From Perkinsus marinus ATCC 50983 (taxonomy: Eukaryota; Perkinsozoa; Perkinsida; Perkinsidae): 47,923 bases of DNA. Location of the stretch: the NCBI RefSeq assembly GCF_000006405.1, contig NW_003202385.1, forward strand, positions 343,743-391,665, in the 5' to 3' direction. The position numbers were made by a program, and so were the translations under genes. The notes below the pieces were generated by a model. It saw nothing but the letters and a program-made list of their open reading frames with translations. It was not told where the DNA came from and made no database searches. Positions 2,020-47,923 of the stretch are shown here, one piece after another (within the stretch, counting starts at the first letter, position 1; each line of letters opens with the position of its first letter).

Positions 2020-3435
2020 GTTCAGTTCTCGGAACATCGTACATCTTACTTCTGTCATCGTTCAAAATCTGCGCTTCAAACAGGCGCTGAAAAGGTGTAG
2101 GAGCAATGGATACTCGATCCGTTATCCCACAAGATGAACATAATTCGATAATATTTGGACGCACTGGTGCAACACAACAATGAAAGATGGGAGGGTCAAT
2201 GAATGATTGAAAAACGGAAGAGATTAATGACTGATTGCTATGTGAAATAAGCAATTCGCGCATGTGCCGATACGCTGCGTATCGGCACATGATATAGGGA
2301 TGCGTGTCATACGCATCCCTATAGTCCATTTTATTTCACTCTCGAAGAGTGTTCCTACTTGAGTTCACTAATACCTATCTTATTATTCTTCCAATCATAC
2401 AAAAAATAACGTCCAATGAGGCTAGGGAGTCCAATACCCCATACAGGATCATCAGACACATTAAGAAGTATGCGACAAAAAGCTCGCCCTTGAGCATCCG
2501 TTCTAATATCCACATATGCATCAGAGGGGATTCTCAGCTTGACGTCCGAACCGTCTAGGCCCTTTAGAAGGAATTTTATCGGTGGAAGGCGTTGTCGTTG
2601 ATTACAATTGACGATGAGCTTAGGACCCCTTTGGGTAATCGTCACCTTACCGTTTGATCGAGCCTCAAGATCTTTTATGAGGGTAGGAAGAGTATACCTA
2701 CGGATAGGTATGAATATGCACTCTGCTCCAGTATCAAGGTCACCACGATCGTTCACAACCGTTACAGGATACGTTCCACCTCCAATGGAGAAGCCGGTAA
2801 CTCGAACATACCTGGGCTTAGTGACCGATACATAGACCAACGGACCTTGATAAATACTAGGATCTGATCCACCGAGCAGGAGTTCCCCTCTTTTATTAGT
2901 GCCATCATGCCTGAGGTACATCGAGAAGATATTACTCTCGATAAGCTTCTGTGAGAGAAGTTGTTCCATTATCGGGACATATGATGATTTTGGATCATCT
3001 TGTGGTGCCAATCCGAAACTGGCATGAGGGACTGGCACATTGGGAGCGTACTTGTATTTAGCAACCAGACCGAATGTAATAGTGGCACTGACAGCTTGGC
3101 CGAAATGGGCCGTTGCAGATTCCTTGAAGATCCTTACTGCGGATCCATCTCCGAAATGTAGTGTATAAAGTTCTCCCTCCCTGCAAGGCTCAGGGCTGCA
3201 TTCATAACAACCGAAGATGATGTCCTTGCACCTCCCTGGATGACCCTTCTCATACCAATGCTTCCAGAGGAAGAACGTCTGGGGGGCGCCGGTGTCAATA
3301 AGACCATAGACATTTTGGCTACCGAGTGTTACTTTTCCAACCAGAAAATACACATCAGCCTCTCTCGTCACCTTCTCATATGATATAGGAACCCTTATGA
3401 GAGATCCCACTACACCTGATAATAGAGAGGAAAGC
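2020..3435 (-). repeat. right arm of the inverted repeat
   Basis: Mirror of 381-1758. It differs from the left arm by point changes and by an extra block of about 40 bp at roughly 2264-2306, which builds two adjacent hairpins (see 2261-2323). Confidence 0.85.
2261..2323. repeat. two adjacent hairpins, present in one arm only
   Basis: Positions 2261-2275 and 2277-2291 are perfect 15-bp inverted arms around one base. Positions 2293-2305 and 2311-2323 are perfect 13-bp arms around five bases. The other arm of the large repeat has the flanks (ATAGGGATGCGT and GGCACATGCGCG) as single copies with nothing between them. Confidence 0.85.
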
Positions 3436-3455
3436 AGAGCATGGTATATGATCAT
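2355..3455 (-). CDS. secreted pepsin-like aspartic protease, copy 2
   Basis: This is a family A1 aspartic endopeptidase paralogous to copy 1 along its length. It has 366 residues in one exon, starting with a hydrophobic signal peptide (MIIYHALLSSLLSGVVGS). The catalytic motifs are IDTGAPQTF and LDTGAECIF, and the flap again reads FGDGS. The C-terminal PSLIGRYFLYDW block is conserved. Nothing is broken, so both copies look functional. Most substitutions are scattered, which suggests divergence under constraint. The gene converges on copy 1, so read-through transcripts from both would be complementary over more than 1 kb. The first residues differ from copy 1 because the repeat boundary falls inside the signal peptide. 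Confidence 0.85.
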   Translation of the reverse strand: MIIYHALLSSLLSGVVGSLIRVPISYEKVTREADVYFLVGKVTLGSQNVYGLIDTGAPQTFFLWKHWYEKGHPGRCKDIIFGCYECSPEPCREGELYTLHFGDGSAVRIFKESATAHFGQAVSATITFGLVAKYKYAPNVPVPHASFGLAPQDDPKSSYVPIMEQLLSQKLIESNIFSMYLRHDGTNKRGELLLGGSDPSIYQGPLVYVSVTKPRYVRVTGFSIGGGTYPVTVVNDRGDLDTGAECIFIPIRRYTLPTLIKDLEARSNGKVTITQRGPKLIVNCNQRQRLPPIKFLLKGLDGSDVKLRIPSDAYVDIRTDAQGRAFCRILLNVSDDPVWGIGLPSLIGRYFLYDWKNNKIGISELK

Positions 3456-4310
3456 CTTAGATCGAATATTAACTACAAGAAATAAACCTTGGCTTACGGA
3501 TGATGCTAATACGTACTCCTAACTGTACCCAAAGGAGAGAACGGCTGTTCTTCCCCCTCGTGTCACATGAGTCCTGTGGCGTGATACGTCATGCCACACC
3601 ATGACGTGACGCCACTGGCGTCATCACGGTGCTGTTGCCACCAGATATTGATGATTTTATAGCACGAAATGCGACAACGTTCGAGGTAGGCGCTAGGAAC
3701 CAGTAGCGCATAATTCAGTTCACTTGATCCGAAATGATATCACGGATAGAACGACCGAATTCTTGTTCATTTTTTCTCACGCTGACTCAAAGAGATTAAC
3801 GCACGCGCGTGTTCACATTATTGTCAGTCTGAGGGCAACGACCCCTCCTCCCTGTTGAACTAGGTCGTGGATCCGATGAGAGTGAAACATGGAGGGATAC
3901 CATTATGAACGATTCTCTTTCTGTTGATGTATAGCATTAGATCAGGAGCGGAGTTATAGATATACTCCCCGAGTAAAAGTTGGTATTTTAAGGCGCAATT
4001 TTAACACGTGTATGCTAAGAATATGTGGAGAAAACTTTTTACCAGTCTTCGACTTCTCACTAACTACGGAGTTAGGTCCTGAAACCTGGAGGTCATATCA
4101 GATAAAGCATAAGTACATACCTCCCTGAGCCGCAAGATGATACTCGTTGTGGTGGCTGTGCACGAATCGAAAAACCGGATATGGTAAGAACATGTGGAGG
4201 GGTGTACACCTTTCGCCGTGCAAGTTTGATGAGTGTGCAGGCAACCAAGTCAGTGTCACATCCAAAAATGGCAATACGTATTCATGTTCGACACAAGTGG
4301 GAAATGTCAG
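3456..4310. other. intergenic stretch
   Basis: No gene recognised. It holds the CGTCA-rich segment at 3556-3628 and a perfect 8+1+8 hairpin at 3607-3623. Confidence 0.5.
3556..3628. promoter_or_regulatory. cluster of CGTCA/TGACG half-sites upstream of protease copy 2
   Basis: Several CGTCA and TGACG motifs lie close together 100-170 bp upstream of the start of the minus-strand protease. CGTCA is the half-site recognised by many bZIP factors. A similar cluster lies near 11995-12035. Function is inferred from motif density only. Confidence 0.2.
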
Positions 4311-4440
4311 GTACAAGTTTGACAATATGCATTTATCTCTGACACATCCTTGATTTATTGAGTCCAAGTTTGATAGTACGCATCCAACTTTGGCACACCC
4401 TTGATTTATCGGGTCCAAGATTGACAATATCTCATCCAAG
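4311..4440. repeat. 51-bp tandem repeat, about 2.5 copies
   Basis: Units begin at 4311, 4362 and 4413 with the motif GTNCAAGTTTGA or a near match. The period is 51 bp. Because 51 is divisible by three it keeps a minus-strand frame open, but that frame looks like repeat sequence rather than a gene. Diverged units may extend left to about 4218. Confidence 0.7.
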
Positions 4441-4830
4441 ATTTACATTACGCACGCAAGATTGACACTTCGAACAAATATAGATGGGATAACGTAAAAA
4501 AACGTAACGTTTATTTACAGTGTGGTTTGATAGATGGTCCGATAGTGGGCCTCACCGACAGGTTGTATGCGTCACCTGTCTCTTTGTCTATTTCTGATCG
4601 CTTCGGCGCTTACTAAGTGCCGCTTAGTGTGCTTCCGTGCAATCATGTGCACGCGTGCTTTGCTCGCGCCGAGCAATGGCCAGTCTTTTACTCGTATAAC
4701 CCAAGTCTGAGTCGTGATAGACTCTATCGCCATCAGATTTATGCCTTAGTAGTTAGTTATTAACCTCGAGACTTAATAGCATCTTCTGTGAGTCGCGTTC
4801 ATGAAGCGGAGCCCGGTCAAACTCTCACAA

Positions 4831-5500: not shown

Positions 5501-5541
5501 ACTCGCCACGACATCGTATAATATACGATGTCGTGGCGAGT
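5501..5541. repeat. perfect hairpin, 20+1+20
   Basis: The arm 5501-5520 (ACTCGCCACGACATCGTATA) is exactly complementary to 5522-5541 around a single A. It is the longest perfect palindrome in the window. Confidence 0.95.
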
Positions 5542-6295: not shown

Positions 6296-7868
6296 ATGCA
6301 TGCTTATGAGGCTCTCTACATGACAGGGGCTGCATGGTACGTAGGTACTCGGGCCAGACCCTCCGAAGCATCTCAGAAAGTCTTCACCATCGACAATCCC
6401 GTGACCTCCAAGAACTGGCCACCTAATGTCAAACAAGAGCCCATTACTCCCGAGTCACATCAGAGTGTTGGGACTAATCTCGACGCCTTTCTTTACAGGT
6501 ATTGTAAAACATTAATGGAGCACTTGAAGCTGAAGGAGATCAATGAGATGAAGAAGAAACGAACCTTCACAGTAAAAAGCATTACATTTGTCGTCATTTC
6601 CGGGGACCATCGTCCAGATGCCTAGGATGAACCTTGGAGATTTGGTTGAAGTTCGGTATGAGATAAGTCGGAGCAAGAAAACGTTTGGGACCTTTCAGGT
6701 AGTATTGACGATTGAACTCTCTTGATTATGATGAGCTTGGGCAGAGGTTTTCGATTGGATTCCCAACTCTATAGTTCGAAAGGATCTCCAACTCCTATCT
6801 ATTCAATGTCTTTCCTCCCTACGTTCTTCCTACCTGTCTCAGGGTTACGTCATACGAACGGCTAATAAGCTGCTAGACAGTACTTTCACACTGAAGAACT
6901 CTTATGATGGCATCACAGTGGAGCAAACAGTAACGATTTCGTTGACTTGTCATAGTCTATGAACTGGGTCGCCTCAGCGCATTTTTCAAATTGCAGTTTC
7001 CTCGGTATTCTCCACGATTGCTCGACGTACGAGTAGTAAAGTCAATCGGTTCTTATGAACGCGACAGGCTTGATAGGCGGCCACGGAATAGAAACTACAG
7101 GTGGGAAACTGACGCCACTCCCACATCTCCTTATCCAGTGTCGAACTCTCATACAGTAGATATCAGATACCAATGGTGGTACTATAAGCGCCATATGTAC
7201 TCGGAAGGATACCAAGTTCGATGGCAAGCTATACCTCAGAAATTCGGTACTTCTTGGGCCGTAAACACTGAGTGGTGTATCGAGCCGTGTGGGCAAATGC
7301 GTACACGGTTATCTTCATGTGTTGGTGACAGTGTTGGAAAATATGCATACAGTCAGTCCGACTTCGTATGTAAAGTTGTATATTTATTGAAGGAGCTCCT
7401 GAACTGATGAGAGCGGACGTATACTCCAACACTGGTTGGTGACAATATGAAATTACTTCTACGTGTCTGTACGCATCTACCCGAATTCGTATGTGAACTT
7501 TCGTATCAGGTTGGGGAGTTCATAGGTTCAGCTGATGGAAACGAATATATATCACTTGCATTGTTGCCAATGGTTGTAGGTGTAATGAGTCTGGAGCCGC
7601 GACTAGGAAGGGAACTAGCTTTACTGAGACGGAGATACAATATGATGAGGCTAGAAGCCGGCCTACCTCCGTGAGCAGCACGGACTCGTTTACTTCCATG
7701 GTCAGATGTCACTGCCTCAGGTACGTCTGGGCAGGACCTTATCAAATACATCAGCGTATGTCGCGAGAAGGGAAGGCCGAGCAAAACCGCAGGCAGTTAC
7801 TGTACGCATACGACGAGCGACGTAAGAGAGCTCTCAAGAAGAAGCTGCAACGGATGAAAGTGAAGTAA
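6296..7868 (+). CDS. MRPL19: mitochondrial ribosomal protein L19 (bL19m), six exons
   Basis: This is a large-subunit protein of the mitochondrial (or other organellar) ribosome. The exons I infer are 6296-6571, 6618-6698, 6843-6929, 6997-7260, 7510-7670 and 7721-7868, all joined by GT-AG introns of 46-249 nt in matching phase, giving 338 residues. The bL19 core is clear: MNLGDLVEVRYE, then GYVIRTANKLLDSTFTLKN, DGITVEQT, FPRYSPRLLDVRVVKSI and the basic RLDRRPRNRNYRW. A long C-terminal extension unlike bacterial L19 ends in a lysine/arginine-rich helix (RRKRALKKKLQRMKVK). The N-terminal extension before the core could hold the targeting peptide. The start at 6296 is the first ATG of the open frame; 6320 is an alternative, and an upstream exon is possible. 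Confidence 0.8.
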
Positions 7869-8282: not shown

Positions 8283-8609
8283 CCTGGAAGCATAAAGCAC
8301 TTTCCTATCCATGCAATTGGTCACATTGCTGGTCACATTGGATACTGTTCTTTGTTATGACTGCATCTGCGCATTTCCCCACAACCCTGCATCAGCCACA
8401 CGATGATAAATGCTCAGCTTTCGATATTACGGTGAGGACCGGGAGGTTTCGTCTGGCCTAGCAGCTAGTTAGCAACAGGACTTGGGAAAAGGTGTTGGCT
8501 TCCGAGATGCTGCTTGGGTATCGACGGCATCCGCTAGAGCTAGTGCGATGTATGTATACCGTCGTGTGATTCATAGACTTTCATAAGCCTAGACACCACG
8601 CTTACAAGG

Positions 8610-9700
8610 CGGGCTCGCATAGTCTACAGCTGGCGGACGAGACTGCTGCAGCAGCTAATGAAGAAGAGGCCTTGACGCGAACATTGACTCGTTTGTTGGA
8701 TAATTACATGGCAAGTGAGTTTGGTGGCGTTCGGAAGCAGAAGCAGCGAATCGAAGTCTATTCTAGTTCTGTTACCAAATTCTCGTTCTGTCGCCAATTC
8801 GTGTGGCTTACCATTTCTAGCAGTATTCAATCTCCTTGTCAGCAAAATGCAAACTTTTCGGTATTGTTGAACACAAGTTACTCGAGGCCCGGCAAGACGC
8901 CTCTCGAGCTGAGAGTGGCATGCACCCAAGCGGGATAAATCATAGTCTACAGCTCACAGGTGGGCGCGTGAATTGTATTTATACCTACAAAAACAACAAC
9001 GCATGTAGTGTACATAAGCAACGAAAATCCAGTATCATATCGGCAGTGTTCCGTGCAGCACGGACCGTGCTGTTGTCGGGGATTTCCCGCCGTCAAAACG
9101 GGTCGTTTGTAGTCAGGGACGCGAATAGAGCTGCTGACGACCTGAGCCATCTGAAGAACTACGAGTTTGACAGATTGGACTCGATTGCAAACTTGCTCGA
9201 TCGAAGTCGAGATTTGGCAGACAGAGTGGGGCTTCCCATCTTCTACCTTTCCTCGCACTCTAATGCTATGGCCCGTCCTCCGCCGCCTGCTGGAGTCTCT
9301 CTTAGATGCTTCACATGGTTCGGGGTTCTATATCAGAGTCTTCTGTTGCTGCGAATCTAGCCAAGACACAGGATTCGTCACGAAGCCTTGCTCGTAAGTT
9401 CCGTCCTCATGCTATTTCGCAAGACCCACTGACGTAATAACGAGAAAATAGTCGCGGCCATCCGAGAGTTGACTACACTGCCTGTGGACGTTGCACACTG
9501 ACCTTGGAGTCTACATTGGAGCATAGTTCAATGACTCCCTTCTTTACCGAAGCTAAGCTGGTGAAAACAATATGATATTTTCAGCAACTCTGAAGGATAC
9601 TGGCTTCGGTGACCAGATGCTCAACGCATTGGTGCATAGCCGGCATTTAGAACGAACAGCCGAGCACTCTCGGGCAGTAGCAGACGTGAGTTGACCCATT
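8610..9700 (+). CDS. alanine-rich helical protein, copy A (exon fragments)
   Basis: I do not recognise this family. Three open segments look like exons of one spliced gene. One lies near 8630-8707 (LADETAAAANEEEALTRTLT and onward, ending NYMA before GTGAGT). One lies near 8843-8910 (KCKLFGIVEHKLLEARQDAS). One lies near 9119-9230 (RAADDLSHLKNYEFDRLDSI, then ANLLDRSRDLADRVGL). All are rich in Ala, Leu, Glu, Asp and Arg with helical or coiled-coil spacing. A further one near 9580-9690 contains DQMLNALVHSRHLERTAEHS. Exact boundaries are not fixed. The same exons recur in copy B, where the gene seems to continue, so copy A may be a truncated duplicate. Open frames on the other strand here are shadows. 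Confidence 0.4.
9056..9072. repeat. hairpin insertion (8+1+8), copy A only
   Basis: CAGCACGG-A-CCGTGCTG is created by 14 extra bases absent at the equivalent place in copy B (about 13607). It lies in a probable intron. Confidence 0.9.
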
Positions 9701-9919
9701 TGGGCTGGTGTATATCTTGTGCAGATCGTTGTGGAGGTGCGATAATCAAAAGTGATATTCAATTGCGATCGTCATGGCCATTTGATAGTCAATACATCTC
9801 GAATCGTGCACCAAACTCGTGCACCAAACTCATTTCTTGAAGCTGTGGGAGTAGTCGAGCTTTACATTTTTTCTGCAAACCTCCGGTCATAGAGGACTCG
9901 TTTGATTCATCTGATGCCC

Positions 9920-10782: not shown

Positions 10783-10809
10783 AGTAACACAACCTGAGGT
10801 TGTGTTACT
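10783..10809. repeat. perfect hairpin, 13+1+13
   Basis: AGTAACACAACCT and its exact reverse complement flank a single G. Intergenic. Confidence 0.95.
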
Positions 10810-11560: not shown

Positions 11561-11823
11561 GGACGGGAACTAAGCGAGCCTGAATCTCTGATAAAAAGGA
11601 AACAGAAGTCGCCATCATTCGATGCTGTCCACAGTCGGCTTGGCGAATATTCTCACAAACAACCTGATGTGGCTAACTTATCAACTATAAACCAACGACA
11701 TCACCAACCAACAAACAGTCATACCCAACTAGCTATGCTCTATTACGAGAGGGAGTGTTGTCTATCCGCAACTATTGAATGCAAATCTATGAAGGTTTAG
11801 TCAACCAGGCAAAGCGACTTTTC

Positions 11824-11842
11824 GTAACACCAGTGGTGTTAC
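11824..11842. repeat. perfect hairpin, 9+1+9
   Basis: GTAACACCA and its reverse complement flank one G. A further partial copy (ACACCA) follows directly. Confidence 0.9.
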
Positions 11843-12734
11843 ACCACACTAGAAGCATATAGTACAGCTCACGTGACCTAGATTAAACCACATGTGAGTA
11901 CGGTTCACGAATCCACGAGACTTTTCCTCGTAAATTTGCTGCGCATCGCAGGCACGCGACTCGTGTGCGCGTGCGCGTGACGCGAGCACATAATGGCTCA
12001 ATCCCTCGCGTCACGTCACGCGCGGCGTCACGGAGCACGAGTAGGGCGAGCGATAAAGCGAAAGTCTATTGAATGACGAGTTCTGGGGATTTTGTGCGAC
12101 TCACACTTATAGCCGATATGATGTGAAAGAAATAATACTTTTTGAGCGGTTGGTCTGGTTCTTAGCTACGGGAAAATCGATCAATTCACGTGTGCAGGCC
12201 AACTTGCGCACAACCTTGTACGTCATCTTCACGCACAAATCACAGCAAACTGACGAAGTTGTCATCCTTACCAGATGACTCAGAGAAAGGGAATTGATTC
12301 GAGACAGAAATAGCTGATGATAATATTAGATAACCACGCCATCTATGGATGAAAATAAGAATACATAGGGAGCATTCGAGACAATGATGTACACGATACT
12401 CGTGACACGATGCAGCGAGGCTAGCAAAATGGGTAGTCTGAGGCCCGAACACTTAGGGTCGTTAGGGTCGCAGTCTGCGACTTGCAAATCGGGAAAAGTA
12501 TGATATTCGTCGTTCATTGGTCTTTGTTCCTCATCACCTTGCAACTAAGACTCGTAACAGGAGTCTAGATCGGGAATAGCTACGGTGATGCGTAGCTATT
12601 CACTGAGAATAATTCACAACCATTGACGGCTGTCTTACATTGTGAGCCCTGCCTGTATCCATGAGCGGCGTTAGGAACGCCACGTGGCAGACAGGGAGCA
12701 AGCGGTTCTTGACGTGTACAACGCAGTTAGTGAA

Positions 12735-12753
12735 TAGTATTCAGTGAATACTA
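12735..12753. repeat. perfect hairpin, 9+1+9
   Basis: TAGTATTCA and its reverse complement flank a single G. It is just upstream of direct repeat copy B. Confidence 0.9.
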
Positions 12754-12851
12754 CTCGGGCCGGAATCGAGACAAGGGGTCCGCCAGCTGAGTGGATAAGA
12801 CCGTATCGAAGGTGATGGCTGAATACTCAGCTTAATATCAGCTGAGTACTG

Positions 12852-15060: not shown

Positions 15061-16019
15061 CATTCATTCCTCTGAACCCTTGTGTTTGAGTCTCTCGCGA
15101 TGTCGTGTTCAATACCGTCGCGTGTCATGGAATGAACGTGGACGTGTGTACTCAGTGGATCACCCAGTGAAATACGGTCGGAGGTGGTCCATCGGTTAAC
15201 AAGTGAAATTCACTCTTGATTTGCCATTGTGCACGTGCATTCGAACAATATTAACATGTTCGCAGAGTTGCTATGCAAAATTCTAGGCTGATGTGAGCAG
15301 TATTTGAGAAGTTGGATCTGCTACACATACCGGGGCCTTCATATTGCGCGTAATGTATCTGGAACCAAGGATCCAAAGACTCACTTCGCGAAAAGCATTC
15401 CTGGTTTCGGCGGAGGAATCAGCTCACTTCTACAATCATTTACTTGAAATAGCACTGGGGGACGCGCGTCCTCAGAGACTCGGCTAACATCGGGCGCATA
15501 CAGTTAGGAACTCAGATGAATGCTCTCCGCACTTCCCAAACGGTGTCTCCTTCCCCCTCGAGAACCCTTGAGCGGTGAGAGTGATTGCCCCTCAACGTTC
15601 GTTCGAAGATTACCCTGTATAAAGAAAGTTCTGTAGATATTGGTTTAGTATGGCTACGGTTTTATCAAGGTTGCTTTCAGGAAGTCTATCACACTTGCTC
15701 GCTACTTTTAGATCGTAACAGCATGACATGCTGAGCATGCATCAATAACATGATCACTCTCTAATAGAGAGTCTCGATAGGGTTTTTCGCCCCGTGCGGA
15801 CCCTCGATTCAGCTTTGATCTAACACTAACATGCTGCCGACGGTCCAATTCCAGAATCTCCAGCATTTCTCCCAAGGTTATTCCGCACAGCAATCACCAG
15901 GCTTCAAAGGTTTGCGGACTGCGCCTCAACTGCAAACCACACCGGGGTGAGCCCTCGAGGTGAACGAGACGTTCGGATGATTTCTCCACGAAGTTTCATG
16001 CTGCATCCGTGGTAGATTT
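15061..16019. other. intergenic stretch
   Basis: No gene recognised. There is a hairpin ACTCTCT-AAT-AGAGAGT at 15756-15772. Confidence 0.4.
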
Positions 16020-25800: not shown

Positions 25801-28800
25801 GCTGACGCGAAATCATTGATGTCGGAAACCGTCTCAGCTCGCACGCCGCGCACGGGTATCCCACATAAGGCTAGCGATGTACCGTCTCCAGCGCCTCTCT
25901 GGCAAAGTTCGAGCATCACGTCGTCTGCACCTTTAGCCAGCAGCATAGACCCCGTACTATCGAGAATATGACCTGTGCCGCCATCATCAGTCTTCAACGC
26001 TTGGACGAGAACACTCATGCGCTTGCGCTCGCAAGTATACTCATTGACACCAAGAATTTTGAATGTAGTATCCTGCCACTGCGACTCCTCTCGTCCGGGG
26101 ATAGACCGTAATATCTTCAATGTCACGTAGTTCGCAGTTCGGGAAGTGAGAATGTATCCTGAGCTCGCCGCCATTTCCACCAACGCTTCCTCATCTGGGC
26201 TAGTGCCTTCAAAACGGACTCCGAGCGGAGATTTAGTCGACGCCTCGGGTATGACAGTATTGCATATCGCACATGTCAACATGAAAAGATGCACGAAAGC
26301 CTCCTGGGGACTTGTGATGGCCGGTACTCCCAGATACTCTAGCAACGCTGCATCACGTGAGCAGTTCTCTGCGGCGTTGGGAAGCACTTCACTGCTCCAT
26401 AATGCGTACAGAGTGGCAGAGTTCACACTCTCAGTGGTGTATCCCATCTCGTCACCCCCATACTGTATGCCGCCGATACTGCACATTCTGAACGTCATGC
26501 GGTTCTCTGTCAAGGTTCCGGTCTTGTCAGCCAGAACATAATCAACTCGGCCAAGGTCATCGTTTAGGCCTGATGTTCCCACGATGATCGAAGGCTTGCC
26601 GTCCCGCATGCGGGAGTCACGCTGAATGATATATGCCTGAAAGTGACGACCTCTATTATGACTCATCGGGAGATCTGAATCAGTATGATCTCAATACTGG
26701 CGGCATGCCATGAAAGCACCATTCATGACGAGAGCGCGCTAAAGCTTTGCCCCAGCTAACCTGTATCGACCTCACGATGTCCACGGTAACGTACAATGAT
26801 ATTGGAATCATATTGTTGAATAAGAGGAGGAATGTCAGAAATTGGTGTCCCTGAAGAGCATCCTGCAGCAGGTTGATGCAACATTCCGAAGTGGTAGTTA
26901 TCGATGCAGACCTACCCAAGCTACGGTATTAGTGTCTATGCCCACGAATAACTCGAACTTGTCTCGCGACCTGGATGTACCGGTGAAGGCGATCGTTAGC
27001 CCCAATGCTAATATCAGAATGAGCCCAAGGACGAAGCCGAGGTATCTACAGGTGAAGCTATTCCTTTATAGGAATGCTCATTCCACTTGCTAGCACGATA
27101 TAGATGACCGTCAGCCCAGTGAGCGGGGTCCAAGCGACGCTATGAGACTAGCGACAGAGCTAGCCGCTCATTCGGAGCGGCAACACCGGTAGACAGTCAA
27201 ACGGTCGACTGGCCAAGTGTTAGCTAACTCTCAATTGTTGAACGGAGAGCATCGATAATGCTTTTATGTGACTCACATAATGTGAGGAGTATGATCGGAC
27301 AACCGCCCGACTGTGTCCGGCGTGGTAACTGTGTCCGCCGAACTCCGGCCGTCGGAGTCTCACTACTACATCACCACCTCAGTCTTGTCACAAGACTCTT
27401 GTGTTCTCGATATAGTATCACCAACTTGATGCTTCATGACATGGTCGATGTATCACACCGGCACACAAGAAACGCAGAAGTGTTCTACTCGAAGTAGTAC
27501 GAAACGCGGAGGTTGCGCATCATCGAACTGTTAGTCATCATTGCCAGAGATTACACAATAGAACCAACTCACCGTCAAGCTCGGTCGCAGATACTGATCC
27601 TGTCTTTCAGTGATATAGCAAGTCGAAATGCACCCGGCAGGTGCGTCAGACCTCCGGCAAAGGTCGTCTCCGCGTGTATACACTAGTCATTCGACCCTCG
27701 CCTACAGAACGTCAGAACGCTCAAGCGCTCCTTGAGCGCTCAGTATACATGCTCCCGGAGCATTGCTCCGGGAGCAGTGCTCCCTTGAGAGCGTTTATGT
27801 TCTGTATCAAGGTCCGATACGACAACATCTAATGTCGTCGGGAGGTTCCCCTCAAGGCCCTTGTCGCGCTACGTTGAACGTGTTCATCGGAACCTCGCGC
27901 GAAATACACGTTCGCGCGTCCCGGAACGAGGCGGAAAATGCATGGTAGCATGATATAGCTGAAGCCACTGAAGTAGAAGTGCTCCCCGTAGTGTTAACCT
28001 TCGCGGACGTATTCGAACGCGAAAGCGGTATCACTGCTATAAACATCCCGATTCTGGCTATGGAAAATCTACAAAATCACAACACGCAAATCGATTTCCC
28101 CCCAAAACCGGCGAAGTTTCAGTGTTAATTCTAGAGGATTTACGGAGTCGATGGAACAAACTATGACACGCGGAAAGGCTGTCACGCGACAATTCTCTGA
28201 GAGTTATTGCGCTGCGAGGTGATGAGCACAGAGAACACTTCCGCGAACTCACGAGCAAGTAAATATGCAGAAAATTCTCTAGCAAAACCTTCACTATATG
28301 TTCTCAGCTCGATAACTGCTATCTATCGAGATCCAAAAGCATTAGAACAGTGGTGAACGATTGGTTATCGGAACGCCTCGGCTGAGCCGAGTCGGCTCGC
28401 CCAGTATCGGAATTTCGCATGATAAGTGTTGATCCCACCTGTTAATAGGGAGCTCCACTTTAGATCTCTTTATTGGGGCGTTTGCCGTCATGTTCATAGC
28501 CAACTTGGTGTCTTTGCCCACATAAGTAACGACTCCGCAACACCACGCCGTGTTTCTAATCGACGCTCCTCGAAGTACCTCATCACCGAAAGCAATCGTG
28601 ATAGTACTGAAAAAGCCGCCCACCTCACACTTACCAGATTCTTGGCATCAGCAGGTTCCCTGTGTCCACCACTAAGTCGGAAAATGCCGTTGAACTCGTC
28701 GATGAGATTATTTGGAGCATCGCATTTTACCGATCCGACACACTCGGAAGCTAACGAGATAGAACGGAACATTCGCCTGAGTATCACAACTATGAGTGCT

Positions 28801-30469
28801 GGTCGATATGTCTTGTGAAGATATCCCCGAACATATTATTGCTGGGTGTCACACTAGACCGCTTTTGACGAGTGAATCGAAGCCCTACCGTGCTTCAGGG
28901 AGAGCTTGCTTCACTTTCAACGCAGATTCCCCATCGAGTTGACTCGTTTCAACATACACCATTTCGTCCGGATCGCTAGAGGTTATCAGCAGCATGTCAG
29001 CCTGGGGTGAACCAAACAGAAATCTGGATCTCCCGCGATTGCCAATACGTTAGACCATACCGGAACTTCCTCTCCTCTGCTCAGGTATATGATCGAGCCG
29101 GCTGTAATGTTCTCCCAAGGGATGAGTTCCAAACCTATCACACGCGCGCATCGTGTCACATGGTCGGACGAGAGTGGCCTGACCAGCCGCGGGGTGCCCA
29201 CTCCAAGATCTTTGCTCGTTGTCGACTGCAGCTTTCCTTCTCACGACCGCTCGGCACAAGCGCTTATTGACCTGTTGATGACCAGTAGTCGATCGGGAAA
29301 TGCAGCACGGTATGCTCGATTCAGTCGAGCATGTATCCTCGAGATCAATAGGGTCGCTTGATTTCTTTGCGATCGATGCGGAGTCCGCATCGTTCTGAAT
29401 GGCGAACACGTATGTCCGCATTGCGGAGATGTCCGCATTGCGGACACGTACGGGTTGCTTTGAACCGTGGGATTTCGAGAGAACATCACTTTAGTGTCAT
29501 TCATATAACGACGATAATCCTCTATCGCATCTTTGAGCATCGTCAGACTGAGCACGAATACCAGCGGCGCGATGGTGGCCCACTCCGAAGTAGGGCTCAA
29601 ATCGTAAGGAAGCATCTGGCAGATACCTGCAGAGACCAGGCCCTCAAGCATCGAGAGAGAACTCTTCAATTCCATGACGATGGTAAACTGTCATTGTTGT
29701 GCTTAGAATCCCGTGTGCGTTGTGCATCACCCTCTTACCAATGAGTAAGAACCATAAGTTCGCAAAGCGGTGAAACTGCTCCCATAAGTTCCGTGGGATG
29801 AAAGTTAGCAGACGGTATTTCGTCGACGGGATCTGGCAGAGATAAGAGTTTCCAGGCGTATGTGGCATCACCACAGGGTGAGTGCTGCAGATCTGCTGCT
29901 AGTATACCATGTCAATATACATCACTAGCAAGCGAATAGCGAATAGGGGCGAAGAATCCCATAATAGTCAGCGTCTGACGATTTCGGAAAGTTAATGCTA
30001 CGAAATCCAGTTAATTTAGATGAAGAGAATTAATGGTGGCACCTCGGTCAAGACCGCTTAGCTGTGAGGAACGATAACTCACTCTATTGTGAAGTTCGGT
30101 CCTGTAGTCACGAGAGATCATTGGGCACAGACTCAGCCTACACAGGAGACGATCAGAGCTGCCAGACAGACACATTGAGTACTCATCGGCCACCGTGACG
30201 TCGGAACCACGTGCCCTGAGCTCAGCCAACGCTCTGTTATTTCGGGAATGCAAACTAGCAGGCTTGTCGGAGGGATACGGTCCAAATGTCAGTTCTATGG
30301 TGTCCGCCTCGGTCGAGTTGCCAGGACTCGGGTTGCGACACCCAGGGGTTGAGTCGGCTCGACCAAATTCGAAGGGACTGATCATCGAATTTGGCGAGTT
30401 TCTGAGGCACAGATGATTCATCATGACGATGGAGAATACTCACTCTCCCCCTAAGATATTCGACAGCAT
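19896..30469 (-). CDS. P4-ATPase / guanylyl cyclase fusion, about 21 exons
   Basis: This is a membrane guanylyl cyclase (GTP to cGMP) fused behind a P4-type phospholipid-flippase-like ATPase. I infer 21 exons in phase, for about 2,430 residues: 30469-30444, 30401-30083, 29832-29739, 29626-29448, 29394-29272, 29225-29061, 29001-28889, 28776-28635, 28578-28439, 27045-26916, 26862-26761, 26636-23967, 23922-22066, 22027-21772, 21656-21466, 21309-21157, 21102-20917, 20793-20734, 20453-20315, 20242-20134, 20034-19896. ATPase motifs are intact: [60 protein letters not shown]. Two membrane blocks precede two cyclase domains. C1 (about 1650-1840) has [17 protein letters not shown] and [14 protein letters not shown]2 (about 2190-2420) has [16 protein letters not shown] and YDIFGVDV. 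The N terminus is uncertain; open sequence extends up to 30764 in other frames. Confidence 0.88.
27046..28438 (-). other. 1.39 kb palindrome-rich intron of the cyclase gene
   Basis: The donor AACAG|GTGGGA and acceptor TGTAG|ATAC join 'LPIN' to 'YLGFVLGL' in phase, exactly where P4-ATPases run from the nucleotide-proximal segment into the third membrane helix. The intron is roughly ten times longer than the gene's typical intron. It holds hairpins at 27264-27280 (8+1+8), 27718-27738 (8+5+8), 27750-27776 (13+1+13) and 28377-28391 (7+1+7). No coding content was recognised. Confidence 0.75.
27750..27784. repeat. 13+1+13 hairpin with a third copy
   Basis: TGCTCCCGGAGCA, T, then its exact reverse complement, followed after one base by another direct TGCTCCC (27778-27784). 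This direct-inverted-direct order is a template-switch signature. Confidence 0.9.
29374..29447. repeat. hairpin intron and adjoining palindrome in the cyclase gene
   Basis: The inferred 53-nt intron at 29395-29447 is built almost wholly of TCCGCA and TGCGGA repeats that fold on themselves (for example GTCCGCA-T-TGCGGAC at 29431-29445). The first codons of the next exon also form a perfect 9+1+9 palindrome at 29374-29392. Confidence 0.8.
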
Positions 30470-30764: not shown

Positions 30765-31968
30765 AACAACTGCTTACACTCAAGTTCAGTGAATGCATGA
30801 GCTCCATTCGGCCCCGAGTGGACAGCTCTTGAGCAAAGATCGCTCCCATACGGTGAGAATAGCGCGATGGTAGCCGGGAAAGATCCTTAGCTAGTCGTTC
30901 AGAGGCCGAAAGCAGGTAGGCGAAGTATCGACATACACGATGATGGAGGCTCTACCATCAAGATCAACTATTTGTTGAACACTCTAGTAGAGTGACTCTA
31001 CATATGCAAACCAGATGAAGAAAGTCACGTCTTATGGTTCGTTCCTATTATAGGCATTTGAAACGGAGCGATGAGTGCCTGGCTGACTCCACAAGGCTTG
31101 AGAATTCCTTAGGATTCCTATTCGTGTATCCGCAGCGCTCAGGACGTGAGGCAATCTCTTACCGTAGGACCTAATCATAATTTATCTAGTCATAATAAAA
31201 TGTAATTCGCTTGGTTAAGCGAGTGTTGAAAATGATTCAGAGCGCTACTCTCAATGATCTCAAACACAGCCCTTGAGGCCGGTCTCTGAGCGGACTGAAG
31301 CAGGAGCAAACGAAGTCTTGGTAATAGACTAGCATGCCCCGGGCATGATGCCCGTACGGCCCGGATCGCGCACGCTCGCTTCCTGCAGAGGGGAATGGAG
31401 CAATCTGAACGGGTTTAGTAGTATGGAGGTTCAACAGTGAACTATTCGCAAGCACCAGATGCATGCGAGTGCAGCCAGTACACTGCCAGCGCAGAGCCGC
31501 CCTGGTAGCGTGTCTGTCTCGATCACACTTGACGTCTAACTCAATGTTGCGAGAATGCTCGGCACCTCAGCTGTCAGGCTCAGGTGTAGCTAGGGAAAGC
31601 CGAAACATACGGGGTATTCAGAAACACTTCCAACACTTCCGGCCGACTGTCTCTCGCTGACCACGACAAGGTATGTGGCTCATACGGAATATTGGTGAAT
31701 CTATGAAAGTAACGGCAATATGGCCTGATCGTTAATGTGATTGGCTCGCTGTGCTGGCTGTGAGGGATGAAGGCCAAGAGGAGTGACGGAATCAAGAGAC
31801 GGAGTCGATGGCCGCAGCCTTAGGGCAGAAGAGAGTGATTGTTGTATCATGTATTGCTCGTAATTAAGGACCGTTTCAATTGGATTGGCTCGTTCGCCCA
31901 ACATAAATGCCAGGAAAACAGCTATTTGGAGTTGGGTTACAGAATCGAACTGGTCATACTGCGAGGAG
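30765..31968. other. intergenic stretch
   Basis: No gene recognised. There is a hairpin CACTCTA-G-TAGAGTG at 30980-30994 and a short GC palindrome near 31336-31350. Confidence 0.4.
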
Positions 31969-36337: not shown

Positions 36338-39300
36338 ATGGTGGACGAACGGGATGCCCTTGCGAGTTTGGACCGCTACTTGTGTTTAAGGCGGACCGTA
36401 ACTGCCTCTGGAAGTGATTGCCTGGTAAGCAGTGGTGAATCCTGTCGACAGTTTTACATTACATCGGGTAATAGCTCAATACGCTCACTAACATGGACTT
36501 GTTATCCTCAAGGCTGTGGGAGTGATCGTTCTAGTCACAAGCTATGGAGATCGGTATGGTGTAGATATATAGTATGCTAGTCGATTCGTCGTCCCTTCAT
36601 GTGGCCGCATCGTTGATTGCTGTGATGTCTGAGGTGGTACCATTGAGCTCAGGTTTTGGTCTGTGGCCCCGATGGGTCACTCAACACCGGCAGCATGCAG
36701 TGTGCGCTGCATCTGTTGTATGGCACATGTAGCATGAATAGACATGATTTTGAAGATGATCTCGTCCCTTGCTTGGTCAGCCGGGACCGTCCTCAATGGT
36801 TCCGAGTTCTCCGAGAGGGCTGATGAGCTAAGCGAGCTCTTCATAGTGGTGTCCGGGAAGGAGGGAATGTGGAGTAGTATTGTAACTCACGTTGCTGGAA
36901 CTCATTGGATGAGTTTGCTTTCCTAGGTACTATATTTTGCCCGGAAACCATGGTGTCGAAAATCAGCAGTGTAACCCGCTTGTGGCCTTCGACATTGGTG
37001 AGAGTCGAGTCTCGTAGAAGCATAGGGCAGGTTTCCCAAGTATGGAGAATAGGTTTTCTCGGCGGATATGGAAACAGATATCGACGACTACGACTTGAAG
37101 AAGACTGGTGCTTTCATTCGCGCATTGTCGGGGAGGACAGACATAGGTCTTTGTCAAAGTTGTGGGTCTTCTGTTGAACTGTGGTGTATTTGTAATCGCA
37201 AGTATATTTTGTAATCAGTGTTCGGAGAGAAGCCAAATGCTAACGGGTTGAAGATGAGCTTAGAGAAATGGCCTCTGGTGAGTATAAAGTACTGGAACCG
37301 AGAATCGAACTCGGGACCTATCGCGTGTGAGGCGATCGTCATAACCAACTAGACCATTCCAGCGATGTGAATCGAAGAACCATGTGCAAGTTTATCGCCT
37401 CTACAAGTCCCTCATCAGGTGAAGGCTTACGGTTATGAGGGCTTCGCGACGCCAGGGTTCCTAACTCTCTCTCGTAACGTTACCGACATCAGCGAGTTGC
37501 TCCGGCGTGAGGTCTTGTCCAATTGGACGCCTGCCGCTGCTTCTCGTGCTGCCCAGGGCCATCCAATGAAGGAGTTGGAGGTGGACGCGTATCGGCTTTT
37601 GAACTCTATCAGTCAGCCTTCAGACTGCGTGGAACCAAAGTATTGCTGCTGTGACCAGAATGGATGGCCGCGGCAGCGTCGTTCTTGAAGAGCTTGGGAA
37701 ACCTTTGATCGAACTTTATGAGTGAGTGAATGCACAGTGTCGTCTCTAATAACGATTGTGCAGCTACGGTCAAACGGGAGATGATGAGATTGGTTCGGCC
37801 AGGGCAAGGCGGCTGGTTCCGGGTTCTTGGGTGGGCACCGAAACGCTTGCTCTGAGAGAGGGTTTTGGGGGGGTTGGGGATTACAAGGAGGGAAGGGGAG
37901 GCTACATGGTGTGGGAGATATGGGTTGGAGATGGATTGAACATAGTGATGTAGGTATGGAAAGGAGTTCATCCAGAAACTCGTATCGCTTGCGCACGGAC
38001 ATACCTCTTGCCGTCCCACGATACGTCTGATGACGACATGGAAGAGATTGAGTCCATGACAATGGAAGCTATTCGACTAGTCCGGTCAGAAGAGTCCTTC
38101 CTATGAGTGGTGAAGTGGTGATTTGGATCAGAGATGCTGCCGGGGCTATCGGTAACGGCGAAGGCAGCGCTGCCGGGGTGAAGGTTGATTGGATTGATGC
38201 ATTCGGATCAACTTCGGAGAGGAGGCCGGAAGGAGCTGAGATTACTTGCGCTTTTATATCGGTAGTTGGCGTTCGAGTAGTGCTGGAGTCCCACTGCCCA
38301 GTATGATAGGCAGTCGTCACGAGCAAAGACATAACGGTCGTCTATGGGGATACCTACATGGTAGTAGCGGCCACATGTTGGGACGGTAGCGTTGTTAGTT
38401 CCGAGATGGGGGAGAGGACGTGATCGCGGTCACCACTGACAGGATGCCGCAATTGACGCCTCTATCTTGGAGCTGTTCGAGGTCGCAGATTAGGGAGAAG
38501 TGTGCAGTGGAGGACGATGCTGCAAGGTATGGGAAGTGCGTGCCGAAGACGACAGTCTCGTCTGCAGGTTCCTATCGGAGCACCGAGGGGTCCGTATGGG
38601 TCGCCTCTTGCTCAACATGGCAGGGAAGACTATGAACAATAAAGAGACCTCCAGCGACGAGTCGAGGGCGACGAAGAGTCTTGGAGAACTCGAATTTGCA
38701 CCTCCTGACGTCACAAGTCGTTCGAGGATCGGATTATGGTGAAGTGGTAGGAGTATTTATGGCTTGAATGCTCCGTCAGGAAATGCCACGCCTCGAAGAG
38801 ATCCCTCCTGGCTCGTGTTGGGATCACGTATGGGAAGATGAACATGTAGGGTGGGCGGCGAGCTGATGGTAGAGAGCAAAAGTGAATATTCATGTCGCTG
38901 GTGGGCTCACGCTACTCCCAAGGACTTCCATTTTGAATTTGGACAGCAACAGTGCAGAGCTAGTCGGAGATCTTCCTCATACCGTAGATACAGTAACGGG
39001 TTCGCATTGTGTGGTGACGGCTCCAGAGTGCTCTTGGTGAAAATTGACAACGAATCGTCCCTGTGTCTAATCGATGGCATTGGAACTGGCGGGTAGGCAT
39101 GAGCTCAGTTGTGGTGTACTATTGCTGTGAGAGGAGGTGCTCTCTGCTTCTCTTAACAACAAGGCCTGCTCGTGTCGGGGCAGCATTGTAATATATGATC
39201 CCCATCTGCTGACAGATTTTCCTACCTGGAGGAAACCTTGTCAGTATTAAACCTTATCAGTGCGAGCTGATATGCGGTGTGAATCTCCCATACGTGGTTG

Positions 39301-45268: not shown

Positions 45269-45300
45269 TAGTACCATAGCGCTGCCGTCCGCCACCACGT

Positions 45301-45588: not shown

Positions 45589-45923
45589 CTAGACGCTTTT
45601 AGAGGTGTTATGACGGTTTTCCAATGTCCGTTGAGTTAACGAAATATCGTCTGATCTCACGTCGAACGTAAGATTAGTAACAGTTTAAAGATCTATAGAA
45701 GTTCAATCGTAGCAGACTAACATACTAGCTTGACGGTAGATACTCAGCTCCATCACAATTCTACGACAACTATGGAGGACGACAATCTTTTGTGTCTTCG
45801 AGTGACCGCAACATTCTCACTTCTCATTATCAAAATCCGTGGAATCCAAGACAGTGTAAACGCCACCACCGTTGACTGACGTAGCAATAACCAGAGATTT
45901 GGTATGGAATTCGCATAATATCC

Positions 45924-45970
45924 ATCTACCGGGATTTGAACCTGCGACTATTGAGGATTAGGAGGCATTG
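45924..45970 (-). pseudogene. tRNA-like fragment
   Basis: The minus strand carries GCAGGTTCAAATCCCGGTAG, a good B-box and T-loop, after AATCCTCAATAGTC. It is too short before the T arm for a full tRNA. Confidence 0.4.
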
Positions 45971-46153
45971 CAGTGGATCTTCTGTGTACCGTGTTGTTGT
46001 TTATGCGTGCTCCTCCAAGTGTTGATGGGACGTATGCGTTCTGTATAAGAAACTGAACCCTCGTTAGTTTCCCCGATTGAATACTTGTTTACTCCTATTG
46101 TCAATCATCACAAGACCTTAGGTAATATCTATGGTAGAGTTTTTACTACTATA

Positions 46154-47923
46154 ATGTCTAGCCGCCAGCCTCTGGTCGCTTTGGTTGTCGAGGAGAGGTC
46201 CGCCATCACACCTGTTGGTGGTCGGCCGTCAGTCTGTGCGTCCTATTCTCACCACCGAGCGAAGACTGTTATCCTCATCTGCTTCCTCATTGGCTGTCTC
46301 CTGGCGGCAGGAGTGACGTGGAAATATCCTTTATATATCCAAGGTGACACCTAAAACGAAGCTCTAGTCATCGTCACCATGACCTCTGTCGCAGAGGTGT
46401 ACACAACAACGTTGCTTAGGTGGTCTTCTGGCCAGCACCACTACCCAAGCAGCATCCCAGAGTGGTGGTGATGACTCCTTCACTATCCTCAGCGTTAAAG
46501 TTGCGGTCTATACTGCTCTGGCCATTATATGCCTCACCACGTTAACGATAGGAGGCCTGGCTTTTACCGCTAAAGTAAGCTATTGCTCGCCACACGTTCT
46601 ATAGGAATCGAACTCGGTAGTGACGTCTCCTACTTCAGTGCTTGTCAACGCGTCAAAGTGGAGTAGGTCGATTCATCCGAATAGCCTCTCCTGAGATCCT
46701 CCTATATACCTGCGGTATGGTGTGCCTATATTCTGCTGCTGCTATCAACTTAGCCATACCAAGGTAGCACTCGTAACATCAGTCACTGATGTGGGCGTCG
46801 CCTTAGGCTGTTCGGGGCTATCATCAACCTAGTATCGGTGCCCTCTACCATGATCCCTGCTGCTGACAAGCGTGCTCGCCTCAACGAGGAGGCTATGGAG
46901 CTGCTCATCTGTCTGGTGTTATCGAATGTCTTCAGTGGAGGTAGAGCGGCTTACCTCAGTGTTGCCGGAGAGCGCATTGTAGCCCGACTAAGGTGGGGGC
47001 GGACGGCCCTTCCTAAGTAGCATGATCATGCCCCGTGTATGTTGCTTAGGAAGGACCTCTTCTCCAACCTTCTGCGCCAAGAGGTTGCCATGTATGACGA
47101 GACGAAGTCAGGCGAGCTCACCAGTAGACTTTCCAACGACGTTACGGTAGCAGTCGTAGCTGCCATTCCTCCGAAGACTCCATCCTTGGCCTTAGACCCT
47201 ACAAGATGCCTTGACCGTGAACCTCTCTGTGGGTGTCCGCTCTCTCGCCGCCGTAATTGGTGGTACCATCATCCTCTTCGTGATATCTACTCGACTAACT
47301 CTTGTAAGTGGCGAAAGATCGGCCTGGCGTAGTCCTGTCGTGGTTTATGCTGGCAGGCAGTGTTAGAATATCATTTGCTCAGGAGTTTCCTTACTCGAAA
47401 TACAAGTTTACATACAAACTTGTGTAGAAGTGTACGGAAACCAATGAGAATTTCCAGAAATTCCCTCAGAATTTTGATATTCTCCCCCTACACTGTGGTG
47501 GTCCGATTCAGATGATGCTGTCGGTGATTCCGCTAGCGGCCATCGCTACTATGGTATACGCCAAATTTGTAGAGCAGCTGTCGAAAGACTACCAGAAGGA
47601 GCTGGCCTCGTCCACTGAAGTAGCGAGTGAAGCTCTGAGTAACATTCGCGTTGTGAAGACGTTCCCTCGAGGGGAGGCTAAGGCCGAGACTCGGTACCAC
47701 ACCTTTGACGAATCATCTCAAGGCTGTGTACAGGTACTCCCATCATATAGATAGGAGCTATGCTATCGGGGTTAAGAAGTCGTTTGGTCTAGGAGGCTTC
47801 GGCTGGGTGGTGGGTATTATGATATATGTGTCGATGACAGGCGTGGTGTGGTATGGTGCTGGCCTGGTCCTCAGTGGAGACATGCTCCCTGGTCAAACTA
47901 CTACCATAAGGCTGTTTGTGTGT
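46154..47923 (+). CDS. ABCB-type half-transporter, N-terminal part (runs off the window)
   Basis: Membrane domain of an ABC exporter of the TAP/MDL type. Exons: 46154-46343, 46420-46574, 46696-46763, 46807-46992, 47050-47146, 47196-47303 and 47512 onward, with GT-AG introns of 43-208 nt in matching phase. The two N-terminal hydrophobic helices ([18 protein letters not shown] and [19 protein letters not shown]) precede the core. Diagnostic segments are [70 protein letters not shown] and [17 protein letters not shown]. The nucleotide-binding domain lies beyond the window. The frame shifts by one base near 47717-47724: HTFDESS is followed in another frame by [16 protein letters not shown]. That is either a sequencing error, a real lesion, or an exon boundary I could not place. 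Confidence 0.88.
46776..46792. repeat. 8+1+8 hairpin inside a 43-nt ABC transporter intron
   Basis: ACATCAGT-C-ACTGATGT occupies the middle of the intron 46764-46806. The first intron of the same gene holds ACCTCTG-TCG-CAGAGGT (46382-46398), and the 208-nt intron holds ACAAGTTT-ACATAC-AAACTTGT (47402-47423). Confidence 0.9.

What the first reader, a model, noticed from the sequence alone, without database searches (positions are those of the whole stretch)
2261..46792. Perfect hairpins with a single-base centre are strongly over-represented in non-coding DNA
I counted at least eleven perfect inverted repeats with arms of 8 bp or more around exactly one base: 2261-2291 (15), 3607-3623 (8), 5501-5541 (20), 9056-9072 (8), 10783-10809 (13), 11824-11842 (9), 12735-12753 (9), 27264-27280 (8), 27750-27776 (13), 29374-29392 (9), 46776-46792 (8). 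For random sequence of even composition, 8-bp arms at a fixed spacing are expected less than once in 48 kb, and 13-bp arms or longer essentially never. Ten of the eleven are in intergenic or intronic sequence; the exception abuts an intron. A one-base loop cannot form a normal RNA hairpin, so DNA-level foldback copying is a better explanation than selection for an RNA structure. I know of no described element with this form, though inverted repeats in introns are reported in some dinoflagellate relatives.
Basis: partly seen in the sequence, partly recalled or inferred. Interest (0 to 1): 0.88.

Follow-up and report, generated by a model that had tools for sequence, protein, structure and literature searches.

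The report
Scars of excised hAT-type transposons
The odd one-base-centre palindromes are most likely repair scars left where hAT-type jumping genes cut themselves out of the genome of a Perkinsus-like parasite, each break passing through a DNA hairpin that is re-joined in a surprisingly uniform way.

Summary
All 11 listed palindromes are perfect, 3 more exist, and the excess centres on a one-base loop, in the window (14 vs 0.5 expected, arms>=8) and in 170 kb sampled elsewhere in the genome (19 vs 2.8). They are not fold-back copies. Most belong to structures with one grammar, T1-X-[T2'-X'-T1']-X-T2: T1XT2 is an 8-bp target, X is 6 bp, and centres lie 7 bp apart (31 chains; 0 in shuffles; none at 8-30). 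The centres are the complements of the bases that bordered the lost element (41 and 40 of 45). All four 14-bp gaps in alignments of held repeats are this insertion. A second class has two separate palindromes predicting the same 8-mer. hAT excision predicts this: one-base-offset nicks, flank hairpins, opening to 3' overhangs, annealing across the duplicated target. The genome holds hAT transposases, one in an element with perfect 12-bp inverted ends and an 8-bp duplication. Such footprints are known from Ac/Ds; new are the abundance in a perkinsid and the near-uniform product. Four of the window's 14 palindromes stay unexplained, and no site was found with its element still present.

The parts
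2261..2323 (.). Two-hairpin footprint: left palindrome 2261-2291 (arm 15, centre T) and right palindrome (arm about 15, one mismatch, centre C); target GATACGCA
   Evidence: 39-bp insertion against three unlinked copies (C347, C118, C137), which carry GTGCC-GATACGCA uninterrupted; 7 of 8 target match downstream
3576..3623 (.). Right-hairpin footprint: palindrome 3607-3623, target GTGGCGTC, left target copy GTGGCGTG at 3576-3583 with its junction base complemented
   Evidence: 7 of 8 match, mismatch at the junction base and complementary
5501..5541 (.). Single palindrome, arm 20; no partner target copy found (unexplained)
7321..7442 (.). Candidate hAT-like miniature element still in place: 106 bp, ends CAGTGTTGG, flanked by perfect 8-bp repeat GTTGGTGA
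   Evidence: the only copy found in the genome; chance not excluded for this one
9050..9071 (.). 14-bp footprint, target TCCGTGCT
   Evidence: 14-bp insertion against the tandem copy near 13605
10783..10809 (.). Single palindrome, arm 13; no partner target copy found (unexplained)
11826..11847 (.). 14-bp footprint by its form, target AACACCAC; its history is not settled
   Evidence: three related copies elsewhere have an equally long but different filler, not an empty site
12730..12751 (.). 14-bp footprint, target GTGAATAC; the first centre fits the rule, the second (G) does not
15719..15740 (.). 14-bp footprint, target CAGCATGC; the first centre (A) departs from the rule, the second fits
15756..15772 (.). 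Single palindrome, arm 8; unexplained
27265..27286 (.). 14-bp footprint, target TATGTGAG
27382..27403 (.). 14-bp footprint, target GTCTTGTG
27749..27784 (.). Apparently two nested 14-bp footprints at one site (four centres 7 bp apart), one centre departing from the rule
28377..28398 (.). 14-bp footprint, target CTCGGCTC
29374..29446 (.). Two-hairpin footprint: palindromes 29374-29392 and 29430-29446 both predict target ATGCGGAC
30980..31001 (.). 14-bp footprint, target CACTCTAC
31333..31354 (.). 14-bp footprint, target CATGCCCG
46776..46792 (.). Single palindrome, arm 8; unexplained

Best explanation
The palindromes are excision footprints of hAT-superfamily DNA transposons. An element sits between two copies of an 8-bp target, T1XT2. 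To leave, the transposase nicks each end one base into the flanking DNA, and the freed 3' end attacks the opposite strand, sealing each flank into a hairpin whose tip is the single base left unpaired: T1 X T2' X' T1' on the left, and its mirror on the right. Host nucleases open the hairpins well away from the tip, leaving 3' overhangs. Because both flanks carry the same 8 bp, the two overhangs (T2'X'T1' and T1XT2) are perfectly complementary. They anneal, flaps are trimmed, and the join reads T1 X [T2' X' T1'] X T2, a 14-bp insertion with two one-base-centred palindromes 7 bp apart. When the ends are joined without that annealing, longer P-nucleotide palindromes (arms 6-29) remain on one or both sides. 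Shown here: the sequence grammar, the empty sites, the hAT elements. Inferred: the hairpins, the 3' polarity of opening, the annealing step and the causal link to hAT.
For: (1) X c X' c X chains: 31 at centre spacing 7 against 0 in 8 shuffles, and 0 at every spacing 8-30, in 217,914 bases; 5 of the 31 are links of one TATATAC microsatellite; 18 of the 31 have both extra complementary bases. (2) In 45 distinct spacing-7 structures from 34 held sequences the first centre is the complement of T2 in 41, the second the complement of T1 in 40, both in 36; the uncomplemented base occurs 0 and 1 times. (3) 6-mer direct repeats whose filler begins T2' and ends T1': 52 against 2.7 at distance 14 (3 shuffles); at every other distance from 8 to 60 at most 10. 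(4) All 4 of 4 gaps of exactly 14 bp in an all-against-all alignment of 37 held sequences are this insertion. Checked scar by scar, 9 sites have a second copy spanning them: 4 copies are empty and 5 share the scar, 3 of those with point changes that spoil the palindrome, as expected of older scars. (5) The 39-bp insertion at 2261 is absent from three unlinked copies, whose sequence GATACGCA is the target that the scar itself predicts. (6) Palindrome pairs more than 7 bp apart whose two predicted targets agree at 8 of 8 bases: 7 of 250 pairs against 0 in 5 shuffles; one (L040:602) lies in a local tandem repeat. (7) 8 of 20 non-chain palindromes have a target copy matching 7 of 8 within 40 bases on the predicted side (control 0.5); in all 8 the one mismatch is the junction base, changed to its complement (complement read by eye). 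These 8 are about 6 events, since two are related copies and two are one pair of (6). (8) PF05699 (hAT dimerisation) rings 14 times in the genome, 3 of them in open frames of 725-850 aa; one element on C172 has 12-bp perfect inverted ends CAGGGGTTTATC and a perfect 8-bp duplication GTCGTGGT around the transposase frame, another on C108 has TATAGATGGGC ends and GTGTTGAA. (9) Targets lean to T at 2 and A at 7 (32 of 86, being 43 targets and their reverse complements, against 26% background) and avoid T at 1 and A at 8 (9 of 86); the first is in the direction of the hAT nTnnnnAn (recalled). (10) Published Ac/Ds footprints have the same centre rule and palindrome arms up to 20 nt in yeast (PMC5873905, passages).
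Against: No locus was found with the element still in place in one copy and the scar in another. At 11826 the related copies at 75-78% identity are not empty: three read carry an equally long, different filler between 14-bp-spaced direct repeats, so that scar's history is unclear. Ac/Ds and TcBuster footprints are mixed and often short (PMC5873905, PMC3499496, passages); here the short class (distance 8) is at background (5 vs 4.7), so the repair step differs from the textbook. The target preference is weak. 10 of 32 loop-1 palindromes with arms>=8 fit neither class, where about 3 are expected by chance. Clear ends with an 8-bp duplication were found for 1 of 14 hAT loci as first fetched (a weaker candidate in L033) and for 1 of 2 extended ones, so most hAT matches are not shown to be whole elements. 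The number of scars looks large beside the hAT matches found.
Confidence: 0.87

Rival explanations
1. The same hairpin-excision chemistry, but by another 8-bp-duplicating transposase group or by a domesticated transposase that removes DNA as a programmed step, rather than by ordinary mobile hAT elements.
For: The grammar shows only an 8-bp target, a one-base offset and hairpins; it does not name the enzyme. The product is unusually uniform, and no element-filled partner site was found.
Against: hAT transposases and two elements with 8-bp duplications are present. hAT is a group for which a one-base offset flank hairpin is documented (PMC5873905 and PMC1978519, passages).
Confidence: 0.08
2. 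Polymerase template switching (fold-back or quasi-palindrome copying).
For: Inverted copies of adjacent sequence are its hallmark (recalled), and single palindromes with no partner copy would fit (4 such in the window).
Against: It predicts varied arm lengths and loop sizes, with return points anywhere. Observed: a loop-1 excess, spacing 7 alone, the 14-bp gaps, and two palindromes up to 55 bp apart naming the same 8-mer.
Confidence: 0.03
3. Selected binding sites or RNA hairpins.
For: Inverted repeats are common in such sites (recalled).
Against: The 45 targets share no core beyond a weak positional lean, and at four sites and at 2261 related copies simply lack the insertion.
Confidence: 0.01
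4. Composition, microsatellites or assembly artefact.
For: One TATATAC microsatellite in L021 does give five of the 31 chains.
Against: Dinucleotide shuffles give none, the signal occurs on a dozen contigs (with the contigs), and E. coli gives none in 50 kb.
Confidence: 0.01

Closest known systems
Ac/Ds (hAT) excision footprints with P-nucleotides in plants, yeast and Candida
   Same: Palindromes centred on the complement of the base next to the element; arms up to 20 nt reported in S. cerevisiae; microhomology at many joins (PMC5873905, passages read).
   Different: Those are experimental and varied (28 kinds among 128 in C. albicans, at most 3 P-nucleotides there). Here they are natural, abundant in the sampled genome, and dominated by one 14-bp product that spans the whole target duplication.
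TcBuster and Hermes (hAT) excision
   Same: 8-bp duplications and flank hairpins repaired by end joining (TcBuster: PMC3499496, passages; Hermes: named in PMC1978519 passages, details recalled).
   Different: TcBuster targets nnnTAnnn; the targets here show no central TA, and TcBuster footprints in human cells are commonly a few inserted bases.
Amoebophrya introner elements
   Same: Alveolate, repeats with inverted ends (PMC7789003, passages).
   Different: Those are 8-20 nt inverted repeats at the two ends of introns with 3-5 nt direct repeats; here the inverted copies meet at one base.
V(D)J P-nucleotides
   Same: Palindromic bases from hairpin opening (recalled).
   Different: RAG hairpins have no one-base offset, so their palindromes are even (recalled).

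Membership tests
hAT excision footprint | 8-bp target duplication | tested here: met
   Spacing 7 and both junction-base complements imply an 8-mer; two palindromes name the same 8-mer; the empty site contains it
hAT excision footprint | Palindrome centred on the complement of the base bordering the element | tested here: met
   41 of 45 and 40 of 45, both in 36; 8 of 8 in the second class
hAT excision footprint | hAT transposase and hAT elements in the genome | tested here: met
   14 PF05699 matches, the domain in 3 of 3 frames tested, two elements with inverted ends and 8-bp duplications
hAT excision footprint | Target preference nTnnnnAn or nnnTAnnn | tested here: inconclusive
   T2/A7 at 37% against 26%; no central TA
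hAT excision footprint | Mixed short footprints, 0-3 P-nucleotides | tested here: not met
   Distance-8 class at background, 5 vs 4.7. This is a usual finding rather than a definition, since repair is the host's part
hAT excision footprint | Same site seen with the element still inserted | tested here: inconclusive
   None among held sequences; most of the genome could not be read
Template-switch mutation | Arm length, loop and return point vary freely | tested here: not met
   not excluded for the unexplained single palindromes
Introner element | Inverted repeats at intron ends with short direct repeats | tested here: not met
   The inverted copies meet at one base; gene models were not made

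The most novel reading that the evidence does not exclude
This lineage channels hAT hairpin ends through one dedicated repair route: distant hairpin opening to 3' tails, then annealing over the target duplication. Each excision by this route writes a stereotyped, datable 14-bp inverted scar. Thousands of them would record past jumps, making excision a leading source of short inverted repeats and frameshift-size insertions and letting past transposition be counted from one assembly.
Probability: 0.5. Interest if true: 0.72.

Novelty: new variant of a known kind. Interest (0 to 1): 0.6.

Why it matters
A cut-and-paste jump is usually hard to see once the element has gone. Here the scar carries its own evidence: the 8-bp target, the strand polarity of hairpin opening and the repair route can be read from a 22-bp string. 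That would make the history of excision countable in a single genome, gives a natural record of hairpin-end repair in an alveolate, and explains a class of palindromes that would otherwise look like regulatory or copying structures.

Tried and rejected
Polymerase fold-back or template switching was considered first; the constant spacing of 7 and the fixed centre bases ruled it out for the two-centre class. A 7- or 6-bp duplication was considered; the extra complementary base on both sides makes it 8. Loss of NHEJ as the reason for the uniform product was tested and not supported: a Ku domain match is present (32.4 bits, above cut-off, in a stretch with two stop codons that may be an intron, plus a weaker one), as are single DRMBL (Artemis/Pso2-type, 63.5 bits) and Mre11 DNA-binding (52.7 bits) matches. 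Other footprint classes by distance: none stands out as 14 does. Element-filled partner sites among held sequences: 4 rows at 3 sites, direct repeats of 5-10 bp, none an 8-bp repeat with inverted ends. Three near-identical hAT-bearing repeats (L034-L036): ends not resolved, since the repeat reaches the edge of what I held, over 4.3 kb. Searches of the genome with window 27150-27900 and 30880-31450 found no other copy beyond self and one local match. The search with 11700-12850 found relatives of the 11826 scar; the three I read were not empty. Two of the four TSD-8 candidates lie in the window's inverted gene pair and were dropped as artefacts. The row of L002 was in the wrong orientation and is disregarded. 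The first all-against-all script gave no pairs and was rerun with other gap costs; an earlier sample script stopped on an all-N stretch and was rerun without it. Dropped before the counts: X with fewer than three kinds of base (which removes 11826-11847), the microsatellite, and duplicate contexts (48 to 45). One search covers 32 of the 33 arms>=8 palindromes; one lay too near the end of a stretch.

Papers: PMC5873905, PMC7789003, PMC3499496 and PMC1978519 were read as passages; nothing was read of Yu 2004 or Zhou 2004, which are not held. That such footprints are unreported genome-wide or in Perkinsus rests only on the listings, in an open-licence library.
Full report
OBSERVATION. All 11 listed palindromes are perfect and where stated; the window has 14 with arms of 8 or more. 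Compared with 20 dinucleotide shuffles, the strong excess is at loop 1: 32 vs 2.65 at arms>=7 and 14 vs 0.50 at arms>=8, with loops 0 and 2-4 near background and a small excess at loops 5-7. The same holds in 169,991 bases from 19 ten-kb stretches on four contigs of the same genome: 51 vs 12.0, 19 vs 2.8, and 7 vs 0.1 at arms>=10. Of 20 stretches fetched, one was all N and was left out. Other loops in that sample give 0-6 at arms>=8 up to loop 10; loop 11 has a lesser excess of its own (12 vs 1.6). The genome is 54.46 Mb in 347 contigs.

ORGANISM. The window encodes a guanylate cyclase frame next to a P-type ATPase frame. The best named relative of the cyclase frame is a Perkinsus olseni protein at 58% identity over 77%. 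I take the source to be a perkinsid related to, but not, P. olseni.

THE GRAMMAR. Neighbouring palindromes overlap in a fixed way. In 217,914 bases, strings X c X' c X occur 31 times with centres 7 apart, never in 8 shuffles, and never at 8-30. Five of the 31 are one TATATAC microsatellite; one is the middle link of a longer chain and one is a duplicate, leaving about 24. In 45 distinct cases over 34 held sequences (24 in the window and sample stretches, 21 in hAT-bearing loci) the first centre is the complement of the base after the last X in 41, the second is the complement of the base before the first X in 40, and both hold in 36. The whole is therefore T1 X [T2' X' T1'] X T2: an 8-bp word with its own reverse complement inserted, and 14 bp gained.

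EMPTY SITES. The tandem repeat in the window gives a direct before/after pair: the copy near 13605 reads ...GTGTT CCGTGCTG..., while the copy at 9050 carries 14 extra bases of exactly this form. In an all-against-all alignment of 37 held sequences there are four gaps of exactly 14 bp and all four obey the grammar (targets TCCGTGCT, GTACCATC, CTATGGAC and CGGCTGAC). Among the other gaps printed (7-49 bp, read by eye) I saw no clear case apart from the 39-bp one described next; gaps under 7 were not read. Taken scar by scar, 9 sites have a second copy that spans them: 4 copies are empty and 5 carry the scar too, 3 of these with point changes that spoil the palindrome. Scars thus differ in age, and old ones decay. 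At 11826 the relatives elsewhere in the genome give no empty state: the three read have an equally long but different filler between direct repeats 14 bp apart. I cannot say how that site came about.

THE SECOND CLASS. The 15-bp-arm palindrome at 2261 is followed by another 15-bp-arm structure with one mismatch. Three unlinked copies lack these 39 bp and read GATACGCA across the site, which is the target predicted from the left palindrome alone. At 29374 and 29430 two palindromes 55 bp apart both predict ATGCGGAC. In all, 7 of 250 pairs agree at 8 of 8 bases and none do in 5 shuffles; one of the 7 lies in a local tandem repeat. L021 8526 and 8567 (arms 9 and 29) both give CGTACTGT. Among 20 non-chain palindromes, 8 (about 6 events) have a target copy on the predicted side matching 7 of 8, against 0.5 in the control, and each time the one difference is the junction base turned to its complement (the complement was read by eye on that output). 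With 12 in chains, 8 of this kind and the 29374/29430 pair, 22 of the 32 arms>=8 palindromes examined in window plus sample are accounted for. 5501, 10783, 15756 and 46776 are not explained.

MECHANISM. hAT transposases nick one base into the flank and seal the flank as a hairpin. Published Ac/Ds footprints carry 'palindromic P-nucleotide insertions ... [quoted passage not shown] Opening such a hairpin to a 3' overhang makes the centre the complement of the bordering base; a 5' overhang would leave the base itself. The counts 41 to 0 and 40 to 1 favour 3' overhangs on both sides. Those overhangs are T2'X'T1' and T1XT2, which are complementary, and annealing them yields the 14-bp product. The hairpins and the annealing are inferred from sequence, not observed.

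THE ELEMENTS. PF05699 rings 14 times in the genome (a lower bound), and 3 of 3 frames tested carry the domain. An element on C172 has perfect 12-bp inverted ends CAGGGGTTTATC and a perfect GTCGTGGT duplication around its transposase frame; the same search on C25 found no ends. Another, on C108, has TATAGATGGGC ends and GTGTTGAA, the one clear case among the 14 loci as fetched. A 106-bp candidate with CAGTGTTGG ends and GTTGGTGA duplications lies at 7321-7442, but it is the only copy found and could be chance.

WHAT IS UNUSUAL. Known hAT footprints are mixed and often short. Here 52 direct repeats with complementary filler ends sit at distance 14 against 2.7 expected, the short class at distance 8 is at background, and no other distance exceeds 10. 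The product is nearly uniform. A Ku match, an Artemis/Pso2-type match and an Mre11 match are all present, so simple absence of those enzymes is not supported as the reason. At about 24 chains per 218 kb the genome would hold some 6,000; this is an extrapolation from four contigs. hAT-bearing loci are denser (21 in 43,254 bases), a sample chosen for hAT content.

CONTROLS AND LIMITS. A 50-kb E. coli stretch has no spacing-7 chain. No gene models were made, so the exon/intron split is open. No locus with the element in one copy and the scar in another was found.

VERDICT. It is a new variant of a known kind: known chemistry, a natural record spread over the sampled genome, and an unusually uniform repair product.

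Noticed in passing
386-1758 and 2020-3429: Head-to-head inverted duplication (92-96% complementary) carrying two aspartyl protease frames.
   Followed up: partly
8310-9723 and 12870-14264: Tandem copies about 94% identical, which supplied the first clean empty site.
   Followed up: yes
12089-12491: About 400-bp repeat with dozens of partial matches elsewhere; sites such as C281 seem to lack it, with a 4-bp overlap (GGGA) at the junction, so it may be another mobile element.
   Followed up: partly
11826-11847 and C111, C69: Related copies have direct repeats CGTAATACTA 14 bp apart with a filler that is not the inverted copy, where the window has a perfect scar.
   Followed up: partly
22054-26690: Guanylate cyclase frame adjoining a P-type (phospholipid) ATPase frame, an arrangement known from alveolates (recalled).
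   Followed up: no
37289-37363: tRNA-Val (cac) on the minus strand, the only Rfam match in the window at gathering threshold.
   Followed up: no
L004 1081-1418: 336-bp insertion absent from two related copies, flanked by a 9-10 bp direct repeat AAACAGGCGC with no evident inverted ends.
   Followed up: no
L034, L035, L036 (C79, C157, C333): Repeat carrying a hAT dimerisation match, 99.9-100% identical between contigs, over at least 4.3 kb for two of them; ends not found.
   Followed up: partly
L031-L041: Loci around hAT matches hold about four times the scar density of the other stretches (21 in 43 kb against 24 in 218 kb), as if elements hop into each other.
   Followed up: no
L021 7315 and 6900: Two related places share the palindrome core CCCGAAA-A-TTTCGGG with arms 13 and 8, possibly one old scar later duplicated.
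   Followed up: no
sampled 10-kb stretches, loop size 11: A lesser excess at loop 11 (12 vs 1.6 at arms>=8) that I did not trace.
   Followed up: no
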